From Xanthomonas indica (GTDB lineage: Bacteria; Pseudomonadota; Gammaproteobacteria; Xanthomonadales; Xanthomonadaceae), in the NCBI RefSeq assembly GCF_040529045.1, contig NZ_CP131914.1, positions 2,030,501 through 2,094,500 on the forward strand: a stretch of DNA of 64,000 nt, given 5' to 3'. The notes beneath the pieces are model-generated. The model was not told the origin of the DNA, did not search any database, and saw only the letters and a list, made by a program, of their open reading frames with translations. This document shows positions 8,345 through 29,801 of the stretch, in pieces (positions within the stretch are counted from its first letter, which is position 1; each line of letters opens with the position of its first letter). Position numbers and translations under genes: made by a program.

Positions 8345-9142
8345 ATGAGCGAGCATGCGATGTATTTCACCGGCGACGAGGACGCCGCGATGCAGGCGGC
8401 CTACATCGCCGCCCGCGGGACGTTCAAGTTCTTCTGGCGCGAACTGTCCTGGGAGTACCGGCGCATCGTGCCGGGGCTGGAAATGGCGGCGGTCAAGTTC
8501 GCATTCGCGACCGATGCCGGCGATCCCGAGGCGCCGCCGTTCGAACACATGTGGGTCGGCGACGTGCAGTTCGATGGCGAGACCGTCTCCGGCACGCTGC
8601 TCAACGATCCGCACGACATCGCGTCGCTGCAGGCCGGCGCCGAGGTGGCCTTGCCGTTCGCCGAACTGGAGGACTGGATGTACGTCATCGGCGGCAAGGT
8701 CTATGGCGGCTACACCATCGACGCGCAGCGGCGCGAGATGGCGGCCGACGAGCGCGCAGAACACGATGCGGCCTGGGGACTGGAATTCGGTCCGCCCGGG
8801 CAGGTGCAGCTGGTGCCGTCGCCGACGCAGGCGCCGGACGACGGCGCCGCCGCCGACGCGGCTGCCGAACTGTCGCTGCGCGAGCACCCGATGAGCGAGA
8901 ACATTGCGCCGCGCATCGACGAGAATCTGCGCAGCCACCCCGAGGCGGTGCATGCGCGTGACGGGCAGGGCTGGACGCTGTTGCAGCGCGACGCGCTGGC
9001 CGGCAACTACCAGCCGGTGGCGTTGCTGCTGCAGCATGGCGCCGACCCGTCGCTGCGCACGCCGCAGGGACGGACGGCGCTGGAGTTGGCGCAGCACATG
9101 GGCTGGCCGCGCATCGTGCAGTTGTTGCAGCAGGCCGGCTGA
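8345..9142 (+). CDS. DUF2314 (YegJ-like) and ankyrin-repeat protein
   Basis: 265 residues. The N-terminal 140 or so ([36 protein letters not shown], then [22 protein letters not shown]) fit the DUF2314 domain, whose biochemical role is unknown. An acidic Ala/Asp-rich linker follows ([16 protein letters not shown]). The last 80 residues hold ankyrin-like helices: [44 protein letters not shown]. No signal peptide, so probably cytosolic. A protein-binding role via the ankyrin part is inferred. It lies 91 nt after ffh and one nucleotide before the nitronate monooxygenase gene, so the latter is probably co-transcribed. Confidence 0.85.
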
Positions 9143-9143
9143 G

Positions 9144-10232
9144 ATGGTGCCGTCGCCACGCCCGGACTCCGCGGCGCAGGCGAGGGCGCTGCAGTTCTGC
9201 GAGCGCTTCGGCCTGCGCCTGCCGATCCTGCTCAGCCCCATGGCCGGCGCTTGCCCGGTGCCGCTGTCGGCCGCGGTCGCCGCGGCCGGCGGTATGGGTG
9301 CGATGGGCGCGGTGCTGTCCGCGCCGCAGGACATCGAGGCGTGGATGGATGCGTTCCGCGCCGCCGGTGGCGGGCCGGCGCAGGTCAACCTGTGGGTGCC
9401 GGATCCGCCGCCCGCGCGCGATGCCGCCGCCGAGGCCGACGTGCGCGCCTTTCTCGCTGCCTGGGGCCCGCCGGTCGCGGCGGCCGCCGGCGATGCGGCG
9501 CCGGCCGATTTCGATGCCCAGTTCGAGGCCCTGCTCGCGGCGCGCCCGGCGGTGGCCTCCTCGATCATGGGCCTGTTCCGGCCGGACCAGGTGCAGCGCC
9601 TGCAGCAGGCCGGGATCGCCTGGTTCGCCTGCGCCACCACCCTGGACGAGGCGCTGGCCGCGCAGGCCGCCGGCGCCGATGCGGTGGTCGCGCAGGGCGC
9701 CGAGGCCGGCGGCCACCGTGGCGCCTTCGCCGCGGACCGTGCCGAGCGGCAGCTGACCGGGCTGTTTGCGCTGCTGCCACGGCTGGCCGATCGTCTGCAG
9801 ATCCCGGTGATCGCCGCCGGCGGCATCGGCGACGGCCGCGGCATCGCCGCCGCGCTGACCCTGGGCGCGAGCGCGGTGCAGATCGGCACCGCCTTCCTGC
9901 GTACCCCCGAGGCGGCGCTGGCGCCGGCCTGGGCGGCCGCGTTGGCCCAGGCCGAACCCGAGCAGACCACGCTGACCCGCGCCTTCTCCGGTCGCCTGGG
10001 CCGGGCGCTGGTCACCGACTACGTGCGCGCCGCCGCCGCGCCGGACGCACCGCCGCCGCGGCCGTACCCGGTACAGCGTGCGCTGACCGCGCCGATGCGC
10101 CAGGCCGCGCAGCGTGCCGACCGCCTCGCGGCGATGCAGGCCTGGGCGGGGCAGTCGGCATGGATGGCGCCGGCCGAGCCGGTGGCGGCGCTGCTGACGC
10201 GCTGGTGGGCACAGGCGCAGGCCTTGTCGTGA
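9144..10232 (+). CDS. Nitronate monooxygenase family flavoprotein
   Basis: 362-residue FMN enzyme of the NMO / 2-nitropropane dioxygenase family, a TIM barrel that oxidises alkyl nitronates. Motifs: [30 protein letters not shown] at the N-terminus, [37 protein letters not shown] in the middle (catalytic-type His in GGHRG), and FMN phosphate-binding [31 protein letters not shown]. The ATG was chosen because it starts one base after the upstream stop (TGA-G-ATG) and gives the usual N-terminus. It overlaps the next gene by 4 nt (GTGA), so the two are translationally coupled. True substrate not known. Confidence 0.9.
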
Positions 10233-15177: not shown

Positions 15178-15651
15178 CGCGGGTCGGGATCGAGCGTGAG
15201 CCGGCCACACTAGCACCGACCGATGGCAGTGGGGCGATGGGCGAACCGCGGCCTGCAGCGTTCGTGCAGCAGGCGTGCATGGGCCGGGCCCTGGCCGCCT
15301 CATGACGCCTGGGCGCCATGCGCGGCGGCAGGCCCTGCTCGAGCCGTGCGTGGTCACGCGCTTGCGCCGAGGGTGGGAGCGCGCTCGCCACAGATCGCGT
15401 CATGCGCTCCTTGGGCGGGCGTGGATCGACGCGCGGACCGGCGTGTGACGATCGACCTGGGCAAGCCGCGCCCGGGCGCGCCTGCTCTCCCATTCTTCCC
15501 CGCCAACCCATTCATCCTGCAGGGACAGGTCATGGCGGGCGCCGTGCTTGTATTGACGCGACGGCATCGCCATCTGTGCGAAGAGATCAGTCGGCGCCAT
15601 GGCGTCCGATCCGCATCCCCCTCTGGCTGCCTGCAACCCCAACGCAAGTGG
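15178..15651. other. Non-coding stretch between MATE and Hsp15 genes
   Basis: 474 nt with no supported gene. The open frames here lack family features and ribosome sites. No REP or heptamer element was seen. It must contain the divergent promoters, but I could not pick out convincing boxes. Confidence 0.5.
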
Positions 15652-15666
15652 ATGTCGAGCAACGCA

Positions 15667-16074
15667 ATGAACGAATCTGTCGTGCAAGCTGCCGCGGTGC
15701 GCCTGGATGTCTGGCTGTGGGCCGCGCGCTTCTTCAAGACCCGCAGCCTGTCTAAGCAGGCGGTGGAAACCGGCAAGGTGGACGTGGCCGGGCAGCGGCC
15801 CAAGTCCTCGCGCGCGGTGCGCGTGGGCGAACAGTTGCGCGTGCAGCGCGGCGACGAGGTGTTCGAGATCCAGGTGCTGGGCTTGAGCGACACCCGCGGC
15901 CCGGCCAGCGTGGCGCAGGCGCTGTACCAGGAGAGCGAGGCCTCGCGCGAACGCCGCGCGCAACTGCGCGCGCAGCGCAGCGCCGAGCGCAACGGCTACC
16001 AGGCCCCGGACGGCAAACCCGACAAGCGCGCCCGCCGCCTGATCCGCGCGCTCGGCGACCTGGACGCGTTGTAG
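15667..16074 (+). CDS. hslR: Hsp15-like S4-domain RNA-binding protein
   Basis: About 135 residues. The S4 domain occupies residues 10-60: RLDVWLWAARFFKTRSLSKQAVETGKVDVAGQRPKSSRAVRVGEQLRVQ. The tail is basic, with RRAQLRAQRSAERNGYQAPDGKPDKRARRLIRAL, matching Hsp15 (HslR). That protein binds 50S subunits still carrying peptidyl-tRNA after failed translation and returns them to use. Two in-frame ATGs are possible, 15652 (MSSNAMNES) and 15667 (MNES). Neither has a strong Shine-Dalgarno, so the start is uncertain by five residues. Stands alone. Confidence 0.9.
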   Translation: MNESVVQAAAVRLDVWLWAARFFKTRSLSKQAVETGKVDVAGQRPKSSRAVRVGEQLRVQRGDEVFEIQVLGLSDTRGPASVAQALYQESEASRERRAQLRAQRSAERNGYQAPDGKPDKRARRLIRALGDLDAL

Positions 16075-16475: not shown

Positions 16476-19030
<2,555 letters not shown>

Positions 19031-22000
19031 TCAGGCGATCGGCATCACGTCGAAATCGCCGCCCAGGACCCGTTCCAGCCGTCCGCTGCGCCAGCCGCGC
19101 ACGCTGTCGCGCACCAGCGGCGAGGGCGCGATCCGGTAGCGCCGACACACGCGCAACTCGTCCTCGGCCTGTGCGGGGCGCCGTGGCTGTCCGGCCACGT
19201 CGGCAGCGACCCGGACCTGGACGGCGAGGCGGCGCAAGGCCGGTTCGTCGGCGTCCTGTTCCTGCACGTGCAGGCCGCTCTCCATTTCCAGCAGGTCCAG
19301 CGCGCCGAAGCCGCCGATGGCCAGCCACGCGTGGCCCTGCTCGGGATCCTGCCGCAGCACGTCCACGCGCATGTTGCGCTGTTCGGCCCAGGCCAGATAC
19401 ATCTGCAGCACGCGTTGCCACCACTGGCGCGCATCGGCGCCGTGGCGGTGCAGTTCGCTGGCGCCGATGCGCAGGTCCAGCAGCGCATCCTGCGCGCGCT
19501 GGTCCTGCAGCGCATCGCAGGCCAGCCGCAGCAGCCACAGCAATTGCGCCAGGCGTCCGACGAACCCGCCATCGGACTGTGCCGCCTGCAGCCGCGCGCG
19601 CATGCGTACCGCGCTGTTCAGGGCGCTGTCGATGCGGTCGCGGCGTTCGATGCGGTCCAGCACCTGGAAACGCCCCGGCTGCGACCAGAAATCGCGTTCG
19701 CCCATGCTGGCAAAATCGGCATCGCGCGCCTGCTGCCAGGCGTCGCTGGCCTGCAGTGCCTGCAGTGCGCTCAGCGCGGCATCCATCCGCGCCAGCGCTG
19801 CCTCGTCGGCCACGGGCGCATACACGATGTCGCGCAGGTCCAGCGGCGCGTCCGCGCGTCCCGCCGCCGATGGCGCCGGCGCCGCGGCGGGCGCGTCCGG
19901 GGCGATGAAACGGACGTCCAGGCGATCGCCGGCGCCGCGCACGAACAGGAACTGGTCCCCCTCCGGCGCGGTCTGCTCGACGATGCTGCGCGCCAGGGGG
20001 GCGAGCAGATGCTGCTCGATCGCACGCCGCAGCGGCCGCGCGCCCAGGTCCGGGGTGAAGCCGCGGTCGAGCAGGAACTCGATCGCCGACGGTTCCCATT
20101 CAACCGCCCAGGCGCGATTGCGCAGGCCGCGCCGGGTCAGCGTGCGATCCAGTTCCTTGTGCAGGATCTCGCGCATCAGCGCGCGGTCCAGCGGGTTGAA
20201 CAGCACCAGACGATCGAGCCGGTTCACGAACTCGCGGCGGAACGTCTCGTACACCGCCTTTTCCACCGCGCTGCGCGAGTAGCCGCCGGCCACCGTGGCG
20301 AAGCCGGGGCCGGCGGCGCGGGCGAGCGTGGCGCCGACGTTGCTGGTGAGGATGATGATGCTGTGGCGGAAGTCCGCGGTATTGCCGTTGCGGTCGCTCA
20401 GGCGGGCGTCGTCAAAGACCTGCAGGAACAGGTCCCAGACCTTGGGGTGGGCCTTCTCGAACTCGTCCAGCAACACCACCGAGAACGGTTGTTCGCGGAT
20501 GCGCGCGATCAGTGTGCGTTGCCCGGCGCTGTCGTCGCCGGTGAGCCGGTACAGCGCGTCCTCGCCCTGGAACTCGCTCATGTCCAGGCGCAGCAGGCGC
20601 TCGGGGGTGCCGAACAGGAGTTCGCCCAGCGCCTTGGCCAGCTCGGTCTTGCCGGTGCCGGTCGGGCCGGCGAACAGGAACACGCCGATCGGACGACGGC
20701 TGTCGATCAGGCCGGCCTTGAGCATGGCGATGCGGTCGAGCAGGGTCTCCACCGCCTCGTCCTGGCCGAGCACGCGCTGGCGGAAGAAGTGGCGCAGCGC
20801 GTCCAGATCCAGCCGCTGGCGATCGTCGATCACGTCCAGCGGCAGGCCGCTGCGCCGCGACACGGCCTGCAGCAGGGCTTCGTCGTCCAGCGGCAGGCGC
20901 GGCACCTCGGCGCTGGTGGCCGCCTGCAGGGTTTCCTCCAACAACCGCAGCAGCCGCCCCGGCTCGTGCTGCTCGGGGAAATACTGCGCGGCCATGCGCT
21001 CGGCCTCGGCGAGGGTGTGCGCGTCGATCACTTCCGCCTGCAGCGTCTGCTGCTGCGCCTGCGCCCACTGCGCACCGATCTGGGCCAGTGCGGCGGGTGC
21101 CGCCGGCGCCAGCGTCACCACCTCGAAGCGCGACCGCGTCGTCGGCCGTGCCACCTGCAGCTGTGCCAGCTGTTGTGGCGTGATCTCGCCGATCAGGCGC
21201 AATTCGCCGCGCTCCAGCGCCGGCATCACCAGGTCGAGGATGCCCCTCGGGTCGCGTGCATGCGCGCCCTTGTGCAGCAGGTCGTAGAAGTCCGGCGCGC
21301 GCCACAGCGCGCGCTCGCGATGCAGGACCGCGAGCATTTCGCGGATGCGGCCCTCCAGCTCGCCGATGTAGCTCTGCCCGGCGAGGATCTCTGCCGCGGT
21401 CGCCTCGAACACCCGCCAGCCTTCCGCCAGCAGGCGTTCGCTCAGCAGGTCGATCAGCACGCTCTTGCCCACACCGTGTTCGCCGACCAGCAGCACCGGT
21501 TGCGGCGGGACGGCCGTCACCAGGTCGTAGGCGCGCTGCAGCGCTGCGTCCAGCGTCGGGTGCGGCAGGCGCAGGCGCGGCGGTACCGCGGCCACGACGC
21601 GGCCGAAACCGCCCAGCACGCGTTGCTCGCGGCGCTGCGCGCGCGCCTCCTGCAGGCGCTGCAGGAAGGGATCCAGCACCGGCTCCTTGAACCGGCCGAG
21701 GATCTCGCCCAGCTTGGCCACTGCGGCATCGTCCAGGCCGTCGACATCCACCGCCCGGTCCGCCGGCGCCTTGCTCGCGGCCCAGTGCAGGTAAGCGCGC
21801 AAACGCTGCCGGAACGGGACGACGTCCCACCACCAGTCGCGCGCCTGCCGCAGCAGCACGTGCAGGTGGTCGGCATCCGGCTGCGCCTGCAGGTAGTCGA
21901 GCACGAAGTTGAGGGGATACGAGCCCAGGTGCGGCAGCAGTTCCAGCACCGGGTCGAGATCGCTGTTGCGGCGGTGCTGCAGCGCCACGGCCGCCATCGA

Positions 22001-22339
22001 CGGCAATGCCCAGCCGGGGCTGCCGAGCGCCTCGATCACGGCCTGGTCGGAGAACGCCGGACCGGCCAGCAGCGCGGCCCCTTGCTCGAACTGCGCGACC
22101 CGCGCCAGGTCGGCGGGACTGTGGATCTGGTCGTCCAGCGCTTCCACCTGCTGGCGCAGGCGCTGCACCTGCTGTTCGGGCGCGTCGGCGAGGTCGGCGT
22201 CCTGCGCATCGGATGGGACGCTGCCGGCCGGGGCGGGATCGGGCGGGGCGGCCGAAGTCCGCGCCGAACGCGCATGCCCGAGCACGCGCGACAGCACCGC
22301 GCCCACCACGGCGCCGATGACGAACACCAAGATCTCCAT
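19031..22339 (-). CDS. Membrane-anchored Clp-type AAA+ ATPase fused to a release-factor-like domain
   Basis: 1102 residues; start set by GAGGAGCG before ATG. Residues 1-20 are one hydrophobic helix (LVFVIGAVVGAVLSRVL), probably an inner membrane anchor. Residues 50-260 are helical and unassigned. D1 (about 265-420) has Walker A GEHGVGKS (286-293) and the ClpB-like IGELEGRIREML, PALERGELRLIGE and SRFEVV, but the Walker B Asp-Glu is replaced by Asp-Phe (PDFYDLL). D2 (520-790) is intact: GPTGTGKT (558-565), LLDEFEKAH (623-631), LTSNVG, sensor 2 GARPLRRAI. Residues 865-1100 follow release factor 2: RDFWSQPGRFQVLDRIERRDRI matches the PCRF start, ARQWWQRVLQMYLAWAEQR the RF2 WASMLERMYLRWAE helix, LEMESGLHV the TETGVHR strand, and VRDSVRGWRSGRLERVLGGD the C-terminus. 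The GGQ domain is missing. Function unknown; a ribosome-linked unfoldase is speculation. Confidence 0.88.
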   Translation of the reverse strand: MEILVFVIGAVVGAVLSRVLGHARSARTSAAPPDPAPAGSVPSDAQDADLADAPEQQVQRLRQQVEALDDQIHSPADLARVAQFEQGAALLAGPAFSDQAVIEALGSPGWALPSMAAVALQHRRNSDLDPVLELLPHLGSYPLNFVLDYLQAQPDADHLHVLLRQARDWWWDVVPFRQRLRAYLHWAASKAPADRAVDVDGLDDAAVAKLGEILGRFKEPVLDPFLQRLQEARAQRREQRVLGGFGRVVAAVPPRLRLPHPTLDAALQRAYDLVTAVPPQPVLLVGEHGVGKSVLIDLLSERLLAEGWRVFEATAAEILAGQSYIGELEGRIREMLAVLHRERALWRAPDFYDLLHKGAHARDPRGILDLVMPALERGELRLIGEITPQQLAQLQVARPTTRSRFEVVTLAPAAPAALAQIGAQWAQAQQQTLQAEVIDAHTLAEAERMAAQYFPEQHEPGRLLRLLEETLQAATSAEVPRLPLDDEALLQAVSRRSGLPLDVIDDRQRLDLDALRHFFRQRVLGQDEAVETLLDRIAMLKAGLIDSRRPIGVFLFAGPTGTGKTELAKALGELLFGTPERLLRLDMSEFQGEDALYRLTGDDSAGQRTLIARIREQPFSVVLLDEFEKAHPKVWDLFLQVFDDARLSDRNGNTADFRHSIIILTSNVGATLARAAGPGFATVAGGYSRSAVEKAVYETFRREFVNRLDRLVLFNPLDRALMREILHKELDRTLTRRGLRNRAWAVEWEPSAIEFLLDRGFTPDLGARPLRRAIEQHLLAPLARSIVEQTAPEGDQFLFVRGAGDRLDVRFIAPDAPAAAPAPSAAGRADAPLDLRDIVYAPVADEAALARMDAALSALQALQASDAWQQARDADFASMGERDFWSQPGRFQVLDRIERRDRIDSALNSAVRMRARLQAAQSDGGFVGRLAQLLWLLRLACDALQDQRAQDALLDLRIGASELHRHGADARQWWQRVLQMYLAWAEQRNMRVDVLRQDPEQGHAWLAIGGFGALDLLEMESGLHVQEQDADEPALRRLAVQVRVAADVAGQPRRPAQAEDELRVCRRYRIAPSPLVRDSVRGWRSGRLERVLGGDFDVMPIA

Positions 22340-22578
22340 GCGGCGCTCCTCAGGACCTGTCGGCGTGGGCGCGGCAGGCCGCGGGCGGGGTGCTTGGCCG
22401 GCGTGTCGACATGCGGTGGTCTCTCCTTGTGTGGGCGCGTCCACGCGCGATGGCCCGGCCGCTGCCGCGCTCCCGCCTGGCAGCGGTCGAGTATACGGTC
22501 CGCGCACGACGGCTCGTGCTGGTTGCGCACCGTGGACGCACTGCTGCGAGCGTGTGCGTGCGGCACTATCCTGTCGTG

Positions 22579-23274
22579 ATGACCCAACGCGCCACCCGTC
22601 TGCTGCGCCTGCTCGACGCCCTGCGCGGGCGCCGCCGCCCCGTGGCCGGGGCGCAGCTCGCCGCCGACCTGGGCGTGAGCTTGCGCACGCTGTACCGCGA
22701 TATCGCCAGCCTGCGCGGGCAGGGCGCCGACATCCTCGGCGATCCCGGCGTGGGGTATGTGCTGCGTCCGGGTTTCCTGCTGCCGGAGTTGAACTTCAGC
22801 GAAGACGAACTGGAGGCGCTGACCCTGGGCGCGCGTTGGGTGGCGAGCCAGGCCGATCCGGAACTGGCACAGGCGGCGCAGCGCGCCATCACCCGGATCG
22901 GGGCGACGCTGCCGGCGCCGTTGCGGTTGGCGCTGGAGACCAGCGGGTTGCTGGTGCCCGCGGCCCCACCCGCGCAGCCGGCGGCGCCGTGGCTGCCGGT
23001 CCTGCGCCGCGGCATCCGTCTGGAACATGTGCTGCACATGGACTACGCCGATGCCGGCGGCGTCGCCTCGCAGCGGCGCATCTGGCCGTTCGCGATGGCC
23101 TTCCTGGGCGGCTACGGCATGATCGCGGCGTGGTGCGAACTGCGCGGCGATTTCCGCCATTTCCGTGCCGACCGGGTGCTGGCGCTGCGCGACGACGGCG
23201 CGCGCTATCCGGACCGCAGGCATCTGCTGATCCGGCGCTGGCGTGCCGCCACCGGACACCGTGTCGGCTCCTGA
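22579..23274 (+). CDS. HTH/WYL-type transcriptional regulator (YafY-like)
   Basis: 231-residue regulator. N-terminal HTH_11-type winged helix (RLLRLLDALRGRRRPVAGAQLAADLGVSLRTLYRDIASLRGQGADI) followed by DPGVGYVLRPGFLLPELNFSEDELEAL, the connector usual for YafY/DeoR-like WYL proteins. The WYL part is recognisable (HVLHMDYADAGGVASQRRIWPFAMAFLGGYGMIAAWCELRGDFRHFRADRV), although the W-Y-L triplet itself reads GGYGMIAAW. WYL domains sense small molecules or nucleic acids. It is divergent from the Clp-type ATPase with 239 nt between starts, so it might control that gene, and is 57 nt before a GST gene reading the same way. Confidence 0.88.
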   Translation: MTQRATRLLRLLDALRGRRRPVAGAQLAADLGVSLRTLYRDIASLRGQGADILGDPGVGYVLRPGFLLPELNFSEDELEALTLGARWVASQADPELAQAAQRAITRIGATLPAPLRLALETSGLLVPAAPPAQPAAPWLPVLRRGIRLEHVLHMDYADAGGVASQRRIWPFAMAFLGGYGMIAAWCELRGDFRHFRADRVLALRDDGARYPDRRHLLIRRWRAATGHRVGS

Positions 23275-24387: not shown

Positions 24388-26979
24388 CTACAGCAGCGAC
24401 TTGAGCCGGTACAGCGCTTCCAGCGCCTGCTTGGGCGTGAGTTCGTCCGGATCCAGCGCGGCCAGCGCTTCCTGCGCGGCGGACGGCGTGGCCGCGAACA
24501 GGCCGAACTGTTGCGGCGCGTCCAGCGCCTGCGGTGCCATCTGCGAGGCATGGCTCTCGCCGCCGCGCTGCTCCAGTTCCGCCAGGCGCCGCCGCGCCTG
24601 CGCCACGGTGGCCTTGGGCAGGCCGGCCAGCGCCGCCACCTGCAGGCCGAAGCTGCGGTTGGCCGGGCCGTCCTTGACCGCGTGCATGAACACCAGGCGG
24701 TCGCCGTGCTCGACTGCGTCCAGGTGCACGTTGGCGATGCCGCTGGGGCCGCCTTCGACCGATTCGTCGGCCAGCGCGGTCAGCTCGAAATAGTGCGTGG
24801 CGAACAGCGTGTAGCAGCGGTTGTGGTGGGCGAGGTGGCGCGCCACCGCATCGGCCAGGGCCAGGCCGTCGTAGGTGGAGGTGCCGCGGCCGATCTCGTC
24901 CATCAGCACCAGCGACTGCGCGGTGGCGTGGTGCAGGATGTAGCTGGTCTCGGCCATCTCGACCATGAAGGTGGACTGGCCGCGGGCCAGGTCGTCGCCG
25001 GCGCCGATGCGGGTGAGGATGCGGTCGATCGGGCCGATCACCGCGCGCCGTGCCGGCACGTAGCTGCCGATGTGCGCGAGCAGCACGATCAGCGCGTTCT
25101 GGCGCATGTAGGTCGACTTACCGCCCATGTTCGGGCCGGTGATCACCAGCATGCGCCGGTCGGGGTGCAGGTCCAGGTCGTTGGGTTCGAACGGCTGCTC
25201 GCGCACCGCTTCCACCACCGGGTGGCGGCCGCGTTCGATACGCAGGCAGGCGCCGCTGTCCAGCTCCGGCTGGGTCCAGTCCAGTGCCTGTGCGCGTTCG
25301 GCGAAGCTGGCCAGCACGTCCAGCTCGCTGAGCGCGGCGGCGGCGCGCTTGAGCGGCTCCAGGCGCTCGCCCAGCGTGTCCAGCAGGCCTTCGTAGAGCA
25401 GCTTCTCGCGCGACAGCGCGCGCTCGCGTGCCGACAGTACCTTGTCCTCGAAGTTCTTCAGTTCTTCGGTGATGTAGCGCTCGGCGTTGGTCAGGGTCTG
25501 GCGCCGGCTGTAGTGCACCGGCGCCTTGTCGGCCTGGCCCTTGCTGATCTCGATGTAGTAACCGTGCACGCGGTTATAGCCGACCTTCAGCGTGGCGATG
25601 CCGCTGCTGGCGCGTTCGCGCGCTTCCAGGTCGATCAGGAACTGGTCGGCGTTGGTGCTGAGCCGGCGCAGCTCGTCCAGCTCTGCGTCGTAGTCGGCGG
25701 CGATGACGCCGCCGTCGCTGAGCTTGAGCGGCGGCTGCTCGGCGATCGCCGAGGCCAGCAGGTGCGCGATCTCGTCGTGCTGGCCCAGCTCCGCCGCCAG
25801 TGCCGCCAGCCGCGGCGAATCCAGCGGCGCCAGGATTGCGCGCACCTTTGGCAACAGGCCCAGGCCATCGCGCAGTGTGGAGAAGTCGCGCGGGCGCGCC
25901 GAGCGCAGGGCGACGCGGGTGAGGATGCGTTCGACGTCGCCGAGCGCGCGGAACGCCTCGCGCAGGTCGGCATCGGCACCACGATCGATCAACGTGCCGA
26001 CCGCGTGGTGACGCTGCACCAGCACCTCGCGCAGGCGCAACGGACGGTGCAGCCAGCGCCGCAGCAGGCGCCCGCCCATCGGCGTCACCGTGCTGTCGAG
26101 CACGCCAAGCAGGGTATTGCGGGTGTCGCCGTCGACGCGCGTGTCCAGTTCCAGGTGGCGGCGGGTGGCCGCGTTCATCGCGATCGCCTCGCCGGCGGTC
26201 TCCATCGCGATCGCGGTCAGGTGCGGCAGGCGCTGCTTCTGGGTTTCCTCCACGTAGCCGAGCAAGGCGCCGGCGGCGGCGGTGGCGCGCGGCTTGTCGT
26301 CGATGCCGAAGCCGCTCAGATCGTGCAACTGGAAGAACGCCAGCAACTGGCGACGGCCGCTGTCGGCGTCGAACAGCCACGGTGGCCGGCGGCGCACGCC
26401 GCGGCGCTCGCGCAGGAATTCCGGCCACTGGTCCTCGTCGGGCACCAGCAGCTCGGCCGGCTCCAGCCGCGCCAGTTCCGCTTCCAGCGCGTCCTCGCTG
26501 TCCACCTCGTTGACCAGGAAACGGCCGCCGGCCAGGTCGGCCCAGGCCAGGCCGTAGCCCTGCTTGGTGCGCGCGATGGCCATCAGCAGGGTGTCGCGGC
26601 GCTCGTCCAGCAAGGCCTCGTCGGTCACCGTGCCGGGGGTGACGATGCGCACCACCTTGCGCTCGACCAGGCCCTTGGCCAGGGCCGGATCGCCGATCTG
26701 CTCGCAGATCGCCACCGACTCGCCCAGCGCCACCAGCCGCGCCAGATAGCCCTCGTAGGCATGCACCGGCACCCCGGCCATCGGAATCGGCGCACCGCCG
26801 GAACTGCCGCGCTGGGTCAGGGTGATGTCCAGCAGCCGCGCGGCCTTGCGCGCGTCGTCGTAGAACAGTTCGTAGAAATCGCCCATGCGGAAGAACAGCA
26901 GCAGGTCCGGGTACTCGGACTTGGCGGCGAAGAACTGCTTCATCAGCGGGGTGTGTTCGGGGACTTTCTCGGAGGTCAT
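24388..26979 (-). CDS. mutS: DNA mismatch repair protein MutS
   Basis: 863-residue mismatch-recognition ATPase that works with MutL in the cytosol. The mismatch-reading Phe-x-Glu motif is at residues 35-37 ([11 protein letters not shown]). Connector and lever domains follow, with [14 protein letters not shown] and [11 protein letters not shown]. The ATPase shows the Walker [22 protein letters not shown], the Walker [13 protein letters not shown] and [10 protein letters not shown]-terminal dimerisation tail ([21 protein letters not shown]) is present. ATG at MTSEKVPEH follows GAAGG; the longer frame upstream has no family similarity. Convergent with GST. About 260 nt upstream of its start is free of genes. 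Confidence 0.98.
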
Positions 26980-27239
26980 GGCGCCTTCGTGCGGACGTGC
27001 GGGGCGGCAGCGCATGGGATGCGCCGCCGCTGCGACAGGGGCATGGGGCGGCAGGCCGCCCGCGGGGGAGGCAAGTTTAGTGGATTGGGGTTGCGGGCGA
27101 CCTATCCGCGTTGCCGCCGCCCACGCTGGATGGAGCGCGGCGCGCGATCGGGCGCGCAGTTGCCGCCCGGAAAGTGAGCGCCGGTTGCCGATCAAGCAGT
27201 AGTGGAGCGCGGCCATGCTGGGCATGGCCGTGGCATCGC

Positions 27240-29801
27240 TCAGGCCACGAACGGCCGCGACCGCGCGCGTTCCACCGGCAGCGCCAGCCGCGCCGAGGCC
27301 AACCCGGGCGCCGTGGCCTCCAACGTCAGCGTGCCGACCGTGCGCGTGGTCTGCAGCAAGGCCATGCACAGGCCGTTGAAGGCGCGGCGCTGGTCGGCCT
27401 TGTCGCGTTCGTGGCTGGACGGGTCGCCGTTGCCCACGCCGATCAGGCGGCCGGGGCCGCGGACGGCGAAGTGCACGGTGTCGCCGGCGGTGGGCACGAT
27501 GCGGCCCTGCGCGTCGACGATCTCCACCGCGACCACCGCCACATCCTCGGCGTCGGCCAGCAGATTCGGCCGATCGCAGCGCAGGCGGACCGCGGCCGGC
27601 GCGCCGACGGTTTCGCGGCGTTGCGTCAGCACCTGCTTGCCGTCACGGTAGCCGCGCGCTTCGATGCGGCCGGGCGCGTAGCGCACGCGCCACTCGACGT
27701 GGCCGTAGGCCGGCACCTGCTGCAGGCCCTGGCTGACGCCGTTGACCAGCAGTTCCACCGCGTCCAGGTTGCTGTGGCACCAGACGTCGACCATGCCGTT
27801 GTCGCGCTCGTCCAGCAGGCCGTCCCAGTTCCAGTGCGGGAACAGGTGCAGCACCGGTTCGGCGGTCCATTGCGCGCGGTAGTACCAGTAGTTGTCCTTG
27901 GGGAAGCCGCAACTGTCGAGGATGCCGAACTGCGAGGCCACGTTCGGCCAGCGGTTATACGGGGTCGGCTCGCCGCGGTAATCGAAGCCGGTCCAGACGA
28001 AGCCGCCGGCGATGTAAGGGCGCTGCGCGACATAGCTCCACCAGGCTTCGGCGCTGCTCGCCCACCAGGGATAGTCGAGGTCGTAGGCGCGGGCGTAGCC
28101 GCGCACGTCGTCGGTGCGGTAGTTGCCGCGCACGCCGACGGTGCTGCCGGTTTCGCTACCGTAGACCGGGATCTGCGGATGGCGCGCATGGAAAGCGTCC
28201 ATCTGCGTGGTGCGGTAGTTGAAGCCGACCACGTCCACGACCTGGCCGACGCCGTCGTCGAAGCCCTTGTCCATGGCGAAGGTGGTGGGTCGGGTCGGGT
28301 CCAGCCGCCGCACCAGGCGCTGCATGCGCGCGACGATGCGCGCGCCGCGCGCGGTGACCATCTGCGGCTCTTCGTTGCCCAGCGACCACAGCATCACGCA
28401 GGGATGGTTGCGGCCGCGCCGCACCATCGACGTCAGTTCGGCCATGGCCTCGTCGTCGGAGGACATGCGCCGGGTCTCGTCGATCAGCAGCAGGCCCAGC
28501 CGGTCGCACAGCTCCAGCACGGCGGGCGAGGCCGGGTTGTGCGCGCTGCGGTAGGCGTTGCAGCCCATCGACTTGAGCTGGCGCAGGCGCCATTCGTGCA
28601 GGCGGTCGGGAATGGCGGTGCCGACGCCGGCATGGTCCTGGTGGTTGTTGGTGCCGTGCAGCTTGTAGGCCGCGCCATTGAGCAGCAGGCCGCGCTGAGG
28701 ATCGAATTGCAGGCGGCGCACGCCGAAGTGCGTGGTGGTCGCATCGCAGGTGCGACCGTCGCCGAGCAGGCGCGTGGACAGCGTGTAGCGCTGTGGGTTT
28801 TCCGGCGACCACGGTGCGGGCGTGCCCAGCTCCAGGGTCTGCTGCACGCGCTGCACCACGCCCGGTTCGACCGTGACCGGCGCCGAGCTGGCCTGGGCGA
28901 CGATGCGCCCGTCGGGCGCGCGGATCACCGACACCACGCTGCACTGGCGTGGCGTGGCGCCGTTGTTGCCCAGTTCGGTTTCCACCAGGGCCTGCGCGTC
29001 GCCGCCATCCCAGGCGCTGCGCACGTACACGCCGTCCACCGGCACGTGCAGAGCATCGGTGGTGCGCAGCCAGACGTGGCGGTAGATGCCGGCGCCCTCG
29101 TAGAACCAGCCTTCGCCGAGGGTGGCGTCCACGCGCACGGCGATGATGTTCCGGGCGCCGTAGTCGAGCACGTCGCTGAGGTCGACCTCGAAGCCGCAGT
29201 AGCCGCTGCCGTTGCGGCCGACGATGTGGCCGTTGCAGAACACGATGCAATCGCGGAACACGCCGTCGAATTCCAGGCTGATGCGCTTGCCCAGGTCCTC
29301 GGCTGGAATCTCCAGCACGCGGCGGTACCAGCCGATGCTGGTCTGCGGATCGGTGCGGCCCAGCGGCGTGTAGCCATGCGCGGCGGCCGGGTCTTCGCCG
29401 TTGACCAGGGTGGAGCTCGGGTCCTGGCGCGGCGGCAGCGCCACCGCCCAGTCGTGCGGCAGGTCGATGCGCTCCCAGTCGCTGTCGTCGAAGGCGAGCA
29501 GGGCGGCGTCGGCGGTGTCCTTGCCGGCCTTGGCGTAGGTGCGCTGGAAGGTGCCGAAATGGAAGTCGCGTGCCGGATCGTCGGCGTGGCCGAGATGGAA
29601 GCGCCAGCCGCCGTCGCACAGCAGGCGCTGGCGCGGAGCATCGTCGTCCAGATCCAGCGAGAGCGGCGCAATGGCATCGCTGCCGGTGGGCGTGGCGGCC
29701 AGCGCGGCCGGCGCCAGCGCCGCGGCGGCACCGGGCACCGCCACCTGCACGCCGCCGGCGACCAGCGAGCGCAGCAGGTCGCGGCGGCTCAGTTCGATCA
29801 T
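27240..29801 (-). CDS. Beta-galactosidase, GH2, Tat-exported
   Basis: 853 residues. The N-terminus [16 protein letters not shown] with a hydrophobic stretch and ALAATP is a twin-arginine signal, so a folded enzyme is probably exported to the periplasm. GH2 sugar-binding domain ([27 protein letters not shown]), immunoglobulin-like domain, then the barrel with [43 protein letters not shown], acid/base Glu in WSLGNEEPQ and nucleophile Glu in [11 protein letters not shown]-terminal beta-domain follows. Likely removes galactose from galacto-oligosaccharides made by the GH53 enzyme. Its ATG overlaps the GH53 stop (ATGA), so the genes are coupled. Last gene of the TonB receptor operon. Confidence 0.93.

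What the first reader, a model, noticed from the sequence alone, without database searches (positions are those of the whole stretch)
19031..19762. Release factor 2-like domain, without GGQ, fused to a Clp AAA+ ATPase
Residues 865-1100 of the 1102-residue protein line up in order with class I release factor 2: the PCRF entry (FW-x-P-x-R-x-x-VLDRIER), the helix WWQRVLQMYLAWAEQR against WASMLERMYLRWAE, the strand EMESGLHV against TETGVHR, and the C-terminal LVRDSVRGWRSGRLERVLGG against YVLDDSRIKDLRTG. The catalytic GGQ domain and the stop-codon-reading SPF loop are missing. A release-factor scaffold on an unfoldase could place the ATPase on ribosomes or nascent chains at the membrane, a possible new type of translation quality control. 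The fit is by eye; the functional idea is speculation.
Basis: partly seen in the sequence, partly recalled or inferred. Interest (0 to 1): 0.88.

Follow-up and report, generated by a model that had tools for sequence, protein, structure and literature searches.

The report
Release-factor scaffold fused to membrane unfoldase
A membrane-anchored bacterial protein motor of the Clp family carries at its end a stripped-down copy of the translation termination factor RF2 that has kept its shape but lost the parts that read stop codons and release proteins, so it may tie protein quality control to ribosomes, which is not yet tested.

The parts
19031..22339 (-). whole gene, 1102 aa, membrane-anchored Clp/Hsp100 ATPase with RF2-like C-terminal domain
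22277..22336 (-). N-terminal membrane helix (predicted), residues 2-21, followed by disordered residues 21-50
   Evidence: AlphaFold helix 2-21; hydrophobic N-terminus found by script in 35 of 40 relatives
21605..22180 (-). helical N-domain, residues 54-245, HEAT-like at best
   Evidence: weak profile match to an artificial repeat protein (Alpha-Rep4), E 8e-8; no Clp_N domain among the 25 of 28 Pfam matches shown
20900..21601 (-). AAA+ module D1, residues 247-480
21461..21484 (-). D1 Walker A GEHGVGKS, residues 286-293 (GK[ST] in 39 of 41 members)
21275..21310 (-). D1 Walker B position, degenerate, residues 344-355; no DE in 41 of 41
19904..20884 (-). AAA+ module D2 with D2-small domain, residues 486-812
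   Evidence: PF07724, PF10431
20645..20668 (-). D2 Walker A GPTGTGKT, residues 558-565, identical in 41 of 41
20519..20548 (-). D2 pore-loop position, residues 598-607; GYVG missing in 41 of 41
20453..20479 (-). D2 Walker B VVLLDEFEK, residues 621-629; DE in 41 of 41
20300..20308 (-). PGF tripeptide, residues 678-680, in a low-confidence (disordered) loop at the place of ClpA IGF
19034..19834 (-). RF2-like domain, residues 836-1102
19505..19804 (-). counterpart of RF2 domain 1 (helices), residues 846-945
19202..19486 (-). counterpart of RF2 domain 2, residues 952-1046, without GG[TD]E tip and SPF loop
19154..19201 (-). short linker, residues 1047-1062, where RF2 has its GGQ domain 3
19034..19153 (-). 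counterpart of RF2 domain 4, residues 1063-1102, with the conserved basic RRY...PLVRD..RGWR motif

Best explanation
Shown: the protein is an Hsp100/Clp-type double AAA+ ATPase whose C-terminal domain descends from RF2 and keeps RF domains 1, 2 and 4 but none of the parts that read stop codons or hydrolyse peptidyl-tRNA. Predicted: an N-terminal membrane helix holds the ring at the inner membrane. Inferred mechanism: six subunits form a ring in which D2 burns ATP, while D1 binds but probably does not hydrolyse it and still offers an aromatic pore residue. The x-G-F loop of D2 may dock ClpP. The six RF2-derived domains hang around the ring as docking modules for the surface that RF2 domains 1, 2 and 4 contact, most simply the ribosomal A site or its factor-binding region, without needing a codon. 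This would bring stalled or membrane-bound ribosomes, or their nascent chains, to a membrane-tethered remodelling or degradation machine. The confidence given is for this whole mechanism; for the RF2 ancestry of the domain it is about 0.98.
For: RF2 ancestry: (in 20 genus genomes each of the 51 listed profile matches is this gene, 11, or an open frame of RF1/RF2 length, 40). RF2 rather than RF1: profile scores about 45-50 bits against 29-34, prfB E 9.4e-7 against prfA 0.16. Membrane helix. D2 motor intact in 41 of 41, D1 pore residue Y or F in 39 of 41, x-G-F loop in 40 of 41, of which 15 fit the published (L/I/V)-G-(F/L) motif (motif from passages of PMC8745299); the genome's ClpA (named from its sequence) has IGF there and its ClpB has GDG; the loop is disordered in the model; a clpP gene, known by eye, is in the genome. 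AAA+ part nearest to ClpC, Hsp104, ClpA and ClpB. Domain 4 motif nearly invariant across phyla, with mean net charge +2.7 in 24 members against -1 to -3 in the same stretch of 11 RFs, which would suit RNA binding. By elimination: the partner that grips the GGQ domain (PrmC; recalled) cannot be the one kept.
Against: No experiment or model shows ribosome or ClpP binding. The decoding elements that anchor RF2 in the A site are gone, and the RF-conserved G-x-K-[SA] stretch is gone too, 0 of 43. The window protein has PGF, not a canonical tripeptide, as do 23 of 41 members. D2 has no GYVG loop, so threading power is doubtful. I saw no neighbouring gene shared between phyla. The gene is accessory: absent from 9 of 20 genus genomes. 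The full-length model's domain arrangement is unreliable (pTM 0.51).
Confidence: 0.38

Rival explanations
1. The RF2 scaffold has been taken over as a plain protein-protein module (substrate or adaptor recognition, ring assembly, regulation) and has nothing to do with ribosomes any more. The machine is a membrane-anchored Clp-type unfoldase for membrane or envelope-bound clients.
For: All codon-reading and catalytic elements are lost; many conserved residues of the tail are the family's own; no translation genes seen beside it in deep relatives; accessory gene.
Against: Domains 1, 2 and 4 have all been kept in order and shape across phyla, which a simple sticky domain would not need; the tail turned basic.
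Confidence: 0.35
2. A pseudo-unfoldase used as a switch: D2 hydrolysis moves the RF2-like domains, which block or park ribosomes at the membrane (hibernation or translation arrest), without threading any protein.
For: D1 without Walker B and D2 without GYVG in 41 of 41; RF2-shaped domain without release elements.
Against: D1 keeps an aromatic pore residue in 39 of 41 and an x-G-F loop is kept in 40 of 41, which suggest threading still matters.
Confidence: 0.17
3. An ordinary free disaggregase (ClpB-like) that does not use ClpP and carries a decorative domain.
For: Best NCBIfam score is ClpB, 293 bits, but far below its cut-off of 1232; D2 is 41% identical to a ClpB C-terminal domain (4fcv).
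Against: No ClpB middle domain, x-G-F loop present where the genome's ClpB has none, membrane helix, no Clp_N match shown.
Confidence: 0.08
4. The resemblance to RF2 is chance or an eye artefact.
For: Tail alone is weak.
Confidence: 0.01

Closest known systems
Class I release factor RF2 (prfB)
   Same: Fold and order of domains 1, 2 and 4; MYxxWA and ExGxH stretches; colinear C-terminal RD...VLxGDxD motif
   Different: No domain 3 with GGQ, no SPF loop, no GG[TD]E tip, shortened last helix, basic domain 4; fused to an ATPase
ClpA / ClpC (Hsp100 partners of ClpP)
   Same: Two AAA+ modules, sensor-2 GAR, x-G-F loop position, no ClpB-type middle domain; ClpC and ClpA among the top structural rows
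   Different: Membrane helix, other N-domain, D1 Walker B and D2 GYVG lost, RF2-like C-terminus
ClpB / Hsp104 disaggregases
   Different: No middle domain; x-G-F loop present; membrane helix; RF2-like domain
PrfH
   Different: PrfH lacks domain 1 and keeps the catalytic domain (PMC6514570 section 2.4), the reverse of this case; paired with RtcB, not an ATPase
Vms1/ANKZF1 with Cdc48
   Same: A release-factor-type protein joined in function to an AAA+ ATPase in ribosome quality control (passages of PMC6514570)
   Different: Eukaryotic, unrelated RF fold, joined by a binding motif, not by fusion; the same paper argues that it is catalytic
FtsH
   Same: Membrane-tethered AAA+ machine facing the cytosol (recalled)
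   Different: One AAA+ module with its own metalloprotease domain (recalled); no such domain among the Pfam matches shown here (25 of 28 shown)

Membership tests
Class I release factor | Fold of domains 1, 2 and 4 | tested here: met
Class I release factor | GGQ catalytic domain 3 | tested here: not met
   Absent from 43 of 43; GGQ strings in 6 members lie before the domain (5) or, in L067, before the MY helix of domain 2
Class I release factor | Codon-reading SPF (RF2) or PxT (RF1) loop | tested here: not met
   SP[FY] in 0 of 43; P[AVE]T strings in 8, none in the loop position directly after GLHV
Class I release factor | GG[TD]E tip of helix alpha-5 (role recalled) | tested here: not met
   0 of 43 at that place; one stray string in L084 near the C-terminus
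Hsp100/Clp ATPase | Two AAA+ modules with D2-small domain | tested here: met
   PF07724, PF10431; structural rows ClpC, Hsp104, ClpA, ClpB
Hsp100/Clp ATPase | Walker A and B in both modules | tested here: not met
   D2 both in 41 of 41; D1 Walker A in 39 of 41, D1 Walker B DE in 0 of 41
Hsp100/Clp ATPase | GYVG pore loop in D2 | tested here: not met
   0 of 41; present in the genome's ClpA and ClpB
ClpP-binding Clp ATPase | (L/I/V)-G-(F/L) tripeptide in a flexible D2 loop | tested here: inconclusive
   Strict motif in 15 of 41, PGF in 23 including the window protein, MGF 1, AGF 1, PAF 1; loop disordered in model
ClpP-binding Clp ATPase | Physical binding to ClpP | not testable with these tools
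   No interaction assay here; a clpP gene, known by eye, is in the genome
PrfH | Lacks domain 1, keeps GGQ domain | tested here: not met
   Domain 1 present, GGQ domain absent
Ribosome-associated factor | Binding to ribosomes | not testable with these tools
   Needs co-sedimentation or cryo-EM
Anti-phage defence system | Match to a defence model outside the generic AAA+ part | tested here: inconclusive
   All 8 PADLOC hits lie in AAA+ stretches, 7 in D2 and one weak one in D1; a missing match does not exclude a role

The most novel reading that the evidence does not exclude
Bacteria have a membrane-tethered ribosome quality-control machine in which a disarmed RF2 has been built straight into a Clp-type unfoldase. 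It docks on ribosomes without reading a codon and hands stalled, membrane-targeted nascent chains to the motor and to ClpP, a bacterial counterpart in logic of the eukaryotic Vms1-Cdc48 pair.
Probability: 0.27. Interest if true: 0.93.

Novelty: new variant of a known kind. Interest (0 to 1): 0.82.

Why it matters
Release factors are among the most constrained translation proteins. Here one has lost both of its activities and kept its frame in relatives from several phyla, as part of an ATP-driven unfoldase at the membrane. If the frame still docks on ribosomes, this is a direct physical link between translation and Clp proteolysis that I found nowhere described, and it is testable with one purified domain. 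If it does not, it is a clear case of a translation factor recruited for a new job. The Clp part is also unusual: catalysis and pore residue are split between the two rings.

Tried and rejected
Chance match: rejected. Tail-only proof by sequence: not reached. In the PDB the tail profile gave only an unrelated phosphatase at E 0.19; hhalign to RFs gave probability 3.3%, P 0.013; 2 of 150 column shuffles scored as high. I lean on the blind genome hit and the model. Hidden GGQ or SPF in a few relatives: checked, the strings lie elsewhere. Other fusions: three unusually long open frames with RF matches in Acidobacteriota (683, 880 and 1009 aa) read by eye as ordinary RF1/RF2 with a chance upstream frame. 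Carriage by viruses or plasmids: none found in IMG/VR (69 pattern matches, 0 confirmed) or in 72,556 plasmid records at E 1e-5. Operon partner: among the 45 largest neighbour clusters printed and the 24 neighbourhoods printed none is shared between phyla. Foldseek search of the PDB by itself never ran; the VIA second look did. In the full-length VIA run only residues 239-815 were spanned by a fifth or more of the rows, so the N-domain has no verdict there. Composition, promoters, RNA families and the E. coli and phage collections were not searched.

Limits of the counts: the genome search scored at most 21 candidates per genome and at most 15, so their carrier counts are lower bounds. The start picker takes the most hydrophobic start, which favours a hit. 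ClpA, ClpB, ClpX, HslU and ClpP of the genome were named from their sequences, not by a family search.

Literature: 10 searches were run (one search failed on an argument). Searches returned nothing. One search listed 10 of 11, one opened (PMC6514570: outline, search passages and section 2.4 seen). Searches returned 1, 1 and 3 papers, judged unrelated from the listing only. One search listed 15 of 19, none opened. One search listed 7, one opened (PMC8745299: passages seen). PMC6424865 was opened by a wrong DOI guess and is unrelated. That the fusion is undescribed rests on these searches and on the open-licence library they cover; subscription papers and preprints are missing.

Rows dropped: A4 uses window plus 42 of 45 loci (L041 left out as 100% identical, L083 and L085 as truncated). 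Searches use the window plus 40 of 45 loci (L041, L063, L066, L078, L085 left out). A8 uses 30 of 45. A6 uses 23 of 45. The empty-site check fetched 8 of 9 fusion-less genus genomes (G002 left out). L111 (second Acidobacteriota carrier, G509) did not show the LVRDxxRGW string I searched and was not followed up.

Full report
What is there. On the minus strand, 22339 to 19031, lies one gene of 1102 codons. The finding's interval 19031-19762 covers its last 243 residues and stop. The start is supported by relatives whose proteins begin with the same short hydrophobic helix. The genome is taken to be a Xanthomonas: the C-terminal domain is 100% identical to a contig of Xanthomonas sp. F10 (L041). 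katG lies downstream and mutS upstream.

Is the release-factor match real? Yes. Pfam PCRF scores above its curated cut-off on the single sequence, and in the complete genome only three places match PCRF: two that read as prfA and prfB, and this one. BLAST of the domain against the genome's own RF2 gives E 5e-7 for this one comparison. With the alignment A4 (43 sequences: the window and 42 of 45 loci) every member matches PCRF on its own (43 of 43 at E up to 0.1, best 4.8e-12). The profile finds RF2 in the PDB at 1.8e-17, entering at the D-x-W-x-x-PER helix of RF2 domain 1 and running into domain 2. Profile against profile, hhalign gives 98.4% probability. In 20 genomes of the genus each of the 51 listed matches of this profile is either the fusion (11) or an open frame of the length of RF1 or RF2 (40).

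The last 40 residues. A basic motif (RRYR..PSPLVRDSVRGWRTGRLDRVL.GDFD) is the most conserved part of the domain. Sequence evidence that it is RF domain 4 is moderate: hhalign places it colinearly on the RF end but with 3.3% probability (P 0.013), 2 of 150 column shuffles score as high, and it finds no RF in the PDB. In its favour, a blind search of 299 genomes of the phylum gave three genomes with a match: the window's, one with the fusion, and one whose match is the C-terminal end of an RF2 with GGQ and SPF.

What is lost. In all 43 members the GGQ domain, the SPF loop, the GG[TD]E tip of helix 5 and the G-x-K-[SA] stretch are missing at their places. The roles of the loop and the tip in reading stop codons are from my own knowledge. 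It is therefore not a release factor by membership, whatever it binds. The nearest class is RF2, not RF1. All 10 deep-branching carriers tested have further, weaker matches that look like normal release factors: two each in 7, one in 3.

Membrane. A hydrophobic stretch at a start codon was found by script in 35 of 40 loci (the script picks the most hydrophobic start, which favours a hit) and by eye in a 36th, L065. L067 and L079 show none; L075 and L077 are cut at that end. By the positive-inside rule (recalled) the ring would face the cytosol.

Spread. The scan of genome contigs gave 45 loci: mostly Xanthomonadales (Xanthomonas, Lysobacter, Luteimonas, Pseudoxanthomonas, Tahibacter, Rudaea), plus Acidobacteriota, Planctomycetota, Gemmatimonadota, Eisenbacteria, Actinomycetota, a Woeseia MAG and two MAGs titled Hyphomicrobiales and Rhodospirillales. 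Nearly all deep ones are MAG contigs; Solirubrobacter taibaiensis is a strain. On the tree Pseudomonadota (26 rows, support 94/96) and Acidobacteriota (7 rows, 100/100) each form one side of a branch, with several long branches whose places are unsure. It is sparse: at least 2 of 149 Acidobacteriota genomes, one of them the centre of the draw, and 11 of 20 genomes of the genus. No viral or plasmid copy was found; the phage collection was not searched.

A single-gene module. Of 9 genus genomes without it, 8 were examined upstream of katG: 7 have mutS there, none has any part of the fusion by tblastn. A stretch of about 33 bp that lies about 230 bp upstream of the fusion gene in the window is found in 3 of the 8, and in a close relative (L112; katG 98% identical) it lies about 250 bp from katG. 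So the gene comes and goes alone. In deep relatives no neighbour shared between phyla was seen.

How it most likely works. Shown: ancestry, architecture, losses. Predicted: membrane helix, AAA+ fold. Inferred: ring at the membrane, ATP burnt in D2, ClpP docking by x-G-F, RF2-like domains as docking modules. The ribosome is the simplest partner, because it is what RF domains 1, 2 and 4 touch, and because the tail has become basic (mean net charge +2.7 in 24 members against -1 to -3 in 11 RFs). Against it stands the loss of every decoding element and the lack of any binding evidence. I put 0.38 on this mechanism, 0.35 on a scaffold that no longer knows the ribosome.

Compared with the known. The survey of release factors by Burroughs and Aravind (PMC6514570: passages, outline and section 2.4 seen) describes ArfB and PrfH among the bacterial variants; words beginning with Clp, and Xanthomonas, do not occur in its main text. 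PrfH is the reverse case, without domain 1 and with the catalytic domain. Vms1, which works with Cdc48, is an analogue in logic only. No listing or passage from my 10 literature searches describes this fusion.

Verdict. Observation confirmed; interpretation half supported; new variant of a known kind (a Clp ATPase with a disarmed RF2), interest 0.82.

Noticed in passing
window 15223-16074 (+): S4-domain protein, PF01479 E 2e-7, Hsp15-like from its look (recalled family); next but one to the fusion with katG between. Such S4 proteins act on stalled 50S subunits in other bacteria (recalled), but the order here may be plain synteny.
   Followed up: partly
window 16476-18725 (-) and 24388-27369 (-): katG and mutS flank the fusion gene; the same flanks without the fusion occur in relatives of the genus, a clean presence/absence of one gene.
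   Followed up: yes
L064 3646-5649, L070 4617-6617, L073 2133-4139, L082 2967-4973: An unidentified protein of about 667 aa is encoded near the fusion in 6 Acidobacteriota loci (cluster; four places), on the other strand.
   Followed up: no
L044 11753-14170: An 806-aa protein beside the fusion whose start looks like a SEFIR/TIR-type domain by eye; its cluster occurs in 4 loci.
   Followed up: no
L024 967-2037 (-): A release-factor gene with GGQ but without the SPF string, in a genome of the same order.
   Followed up: no
L111 about 9090-10016: Second Acidobacteriota carrier (E 6.7e-94) in which the LVRDxxRGW string was not found; may have a diverged domain 4.
   Followed up: no
window 18944-22579 (+): A 1211-codon open frame runs antisense over the fusion gene; taken as an effect of high G+C, not as a gene.
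   Followed up: no
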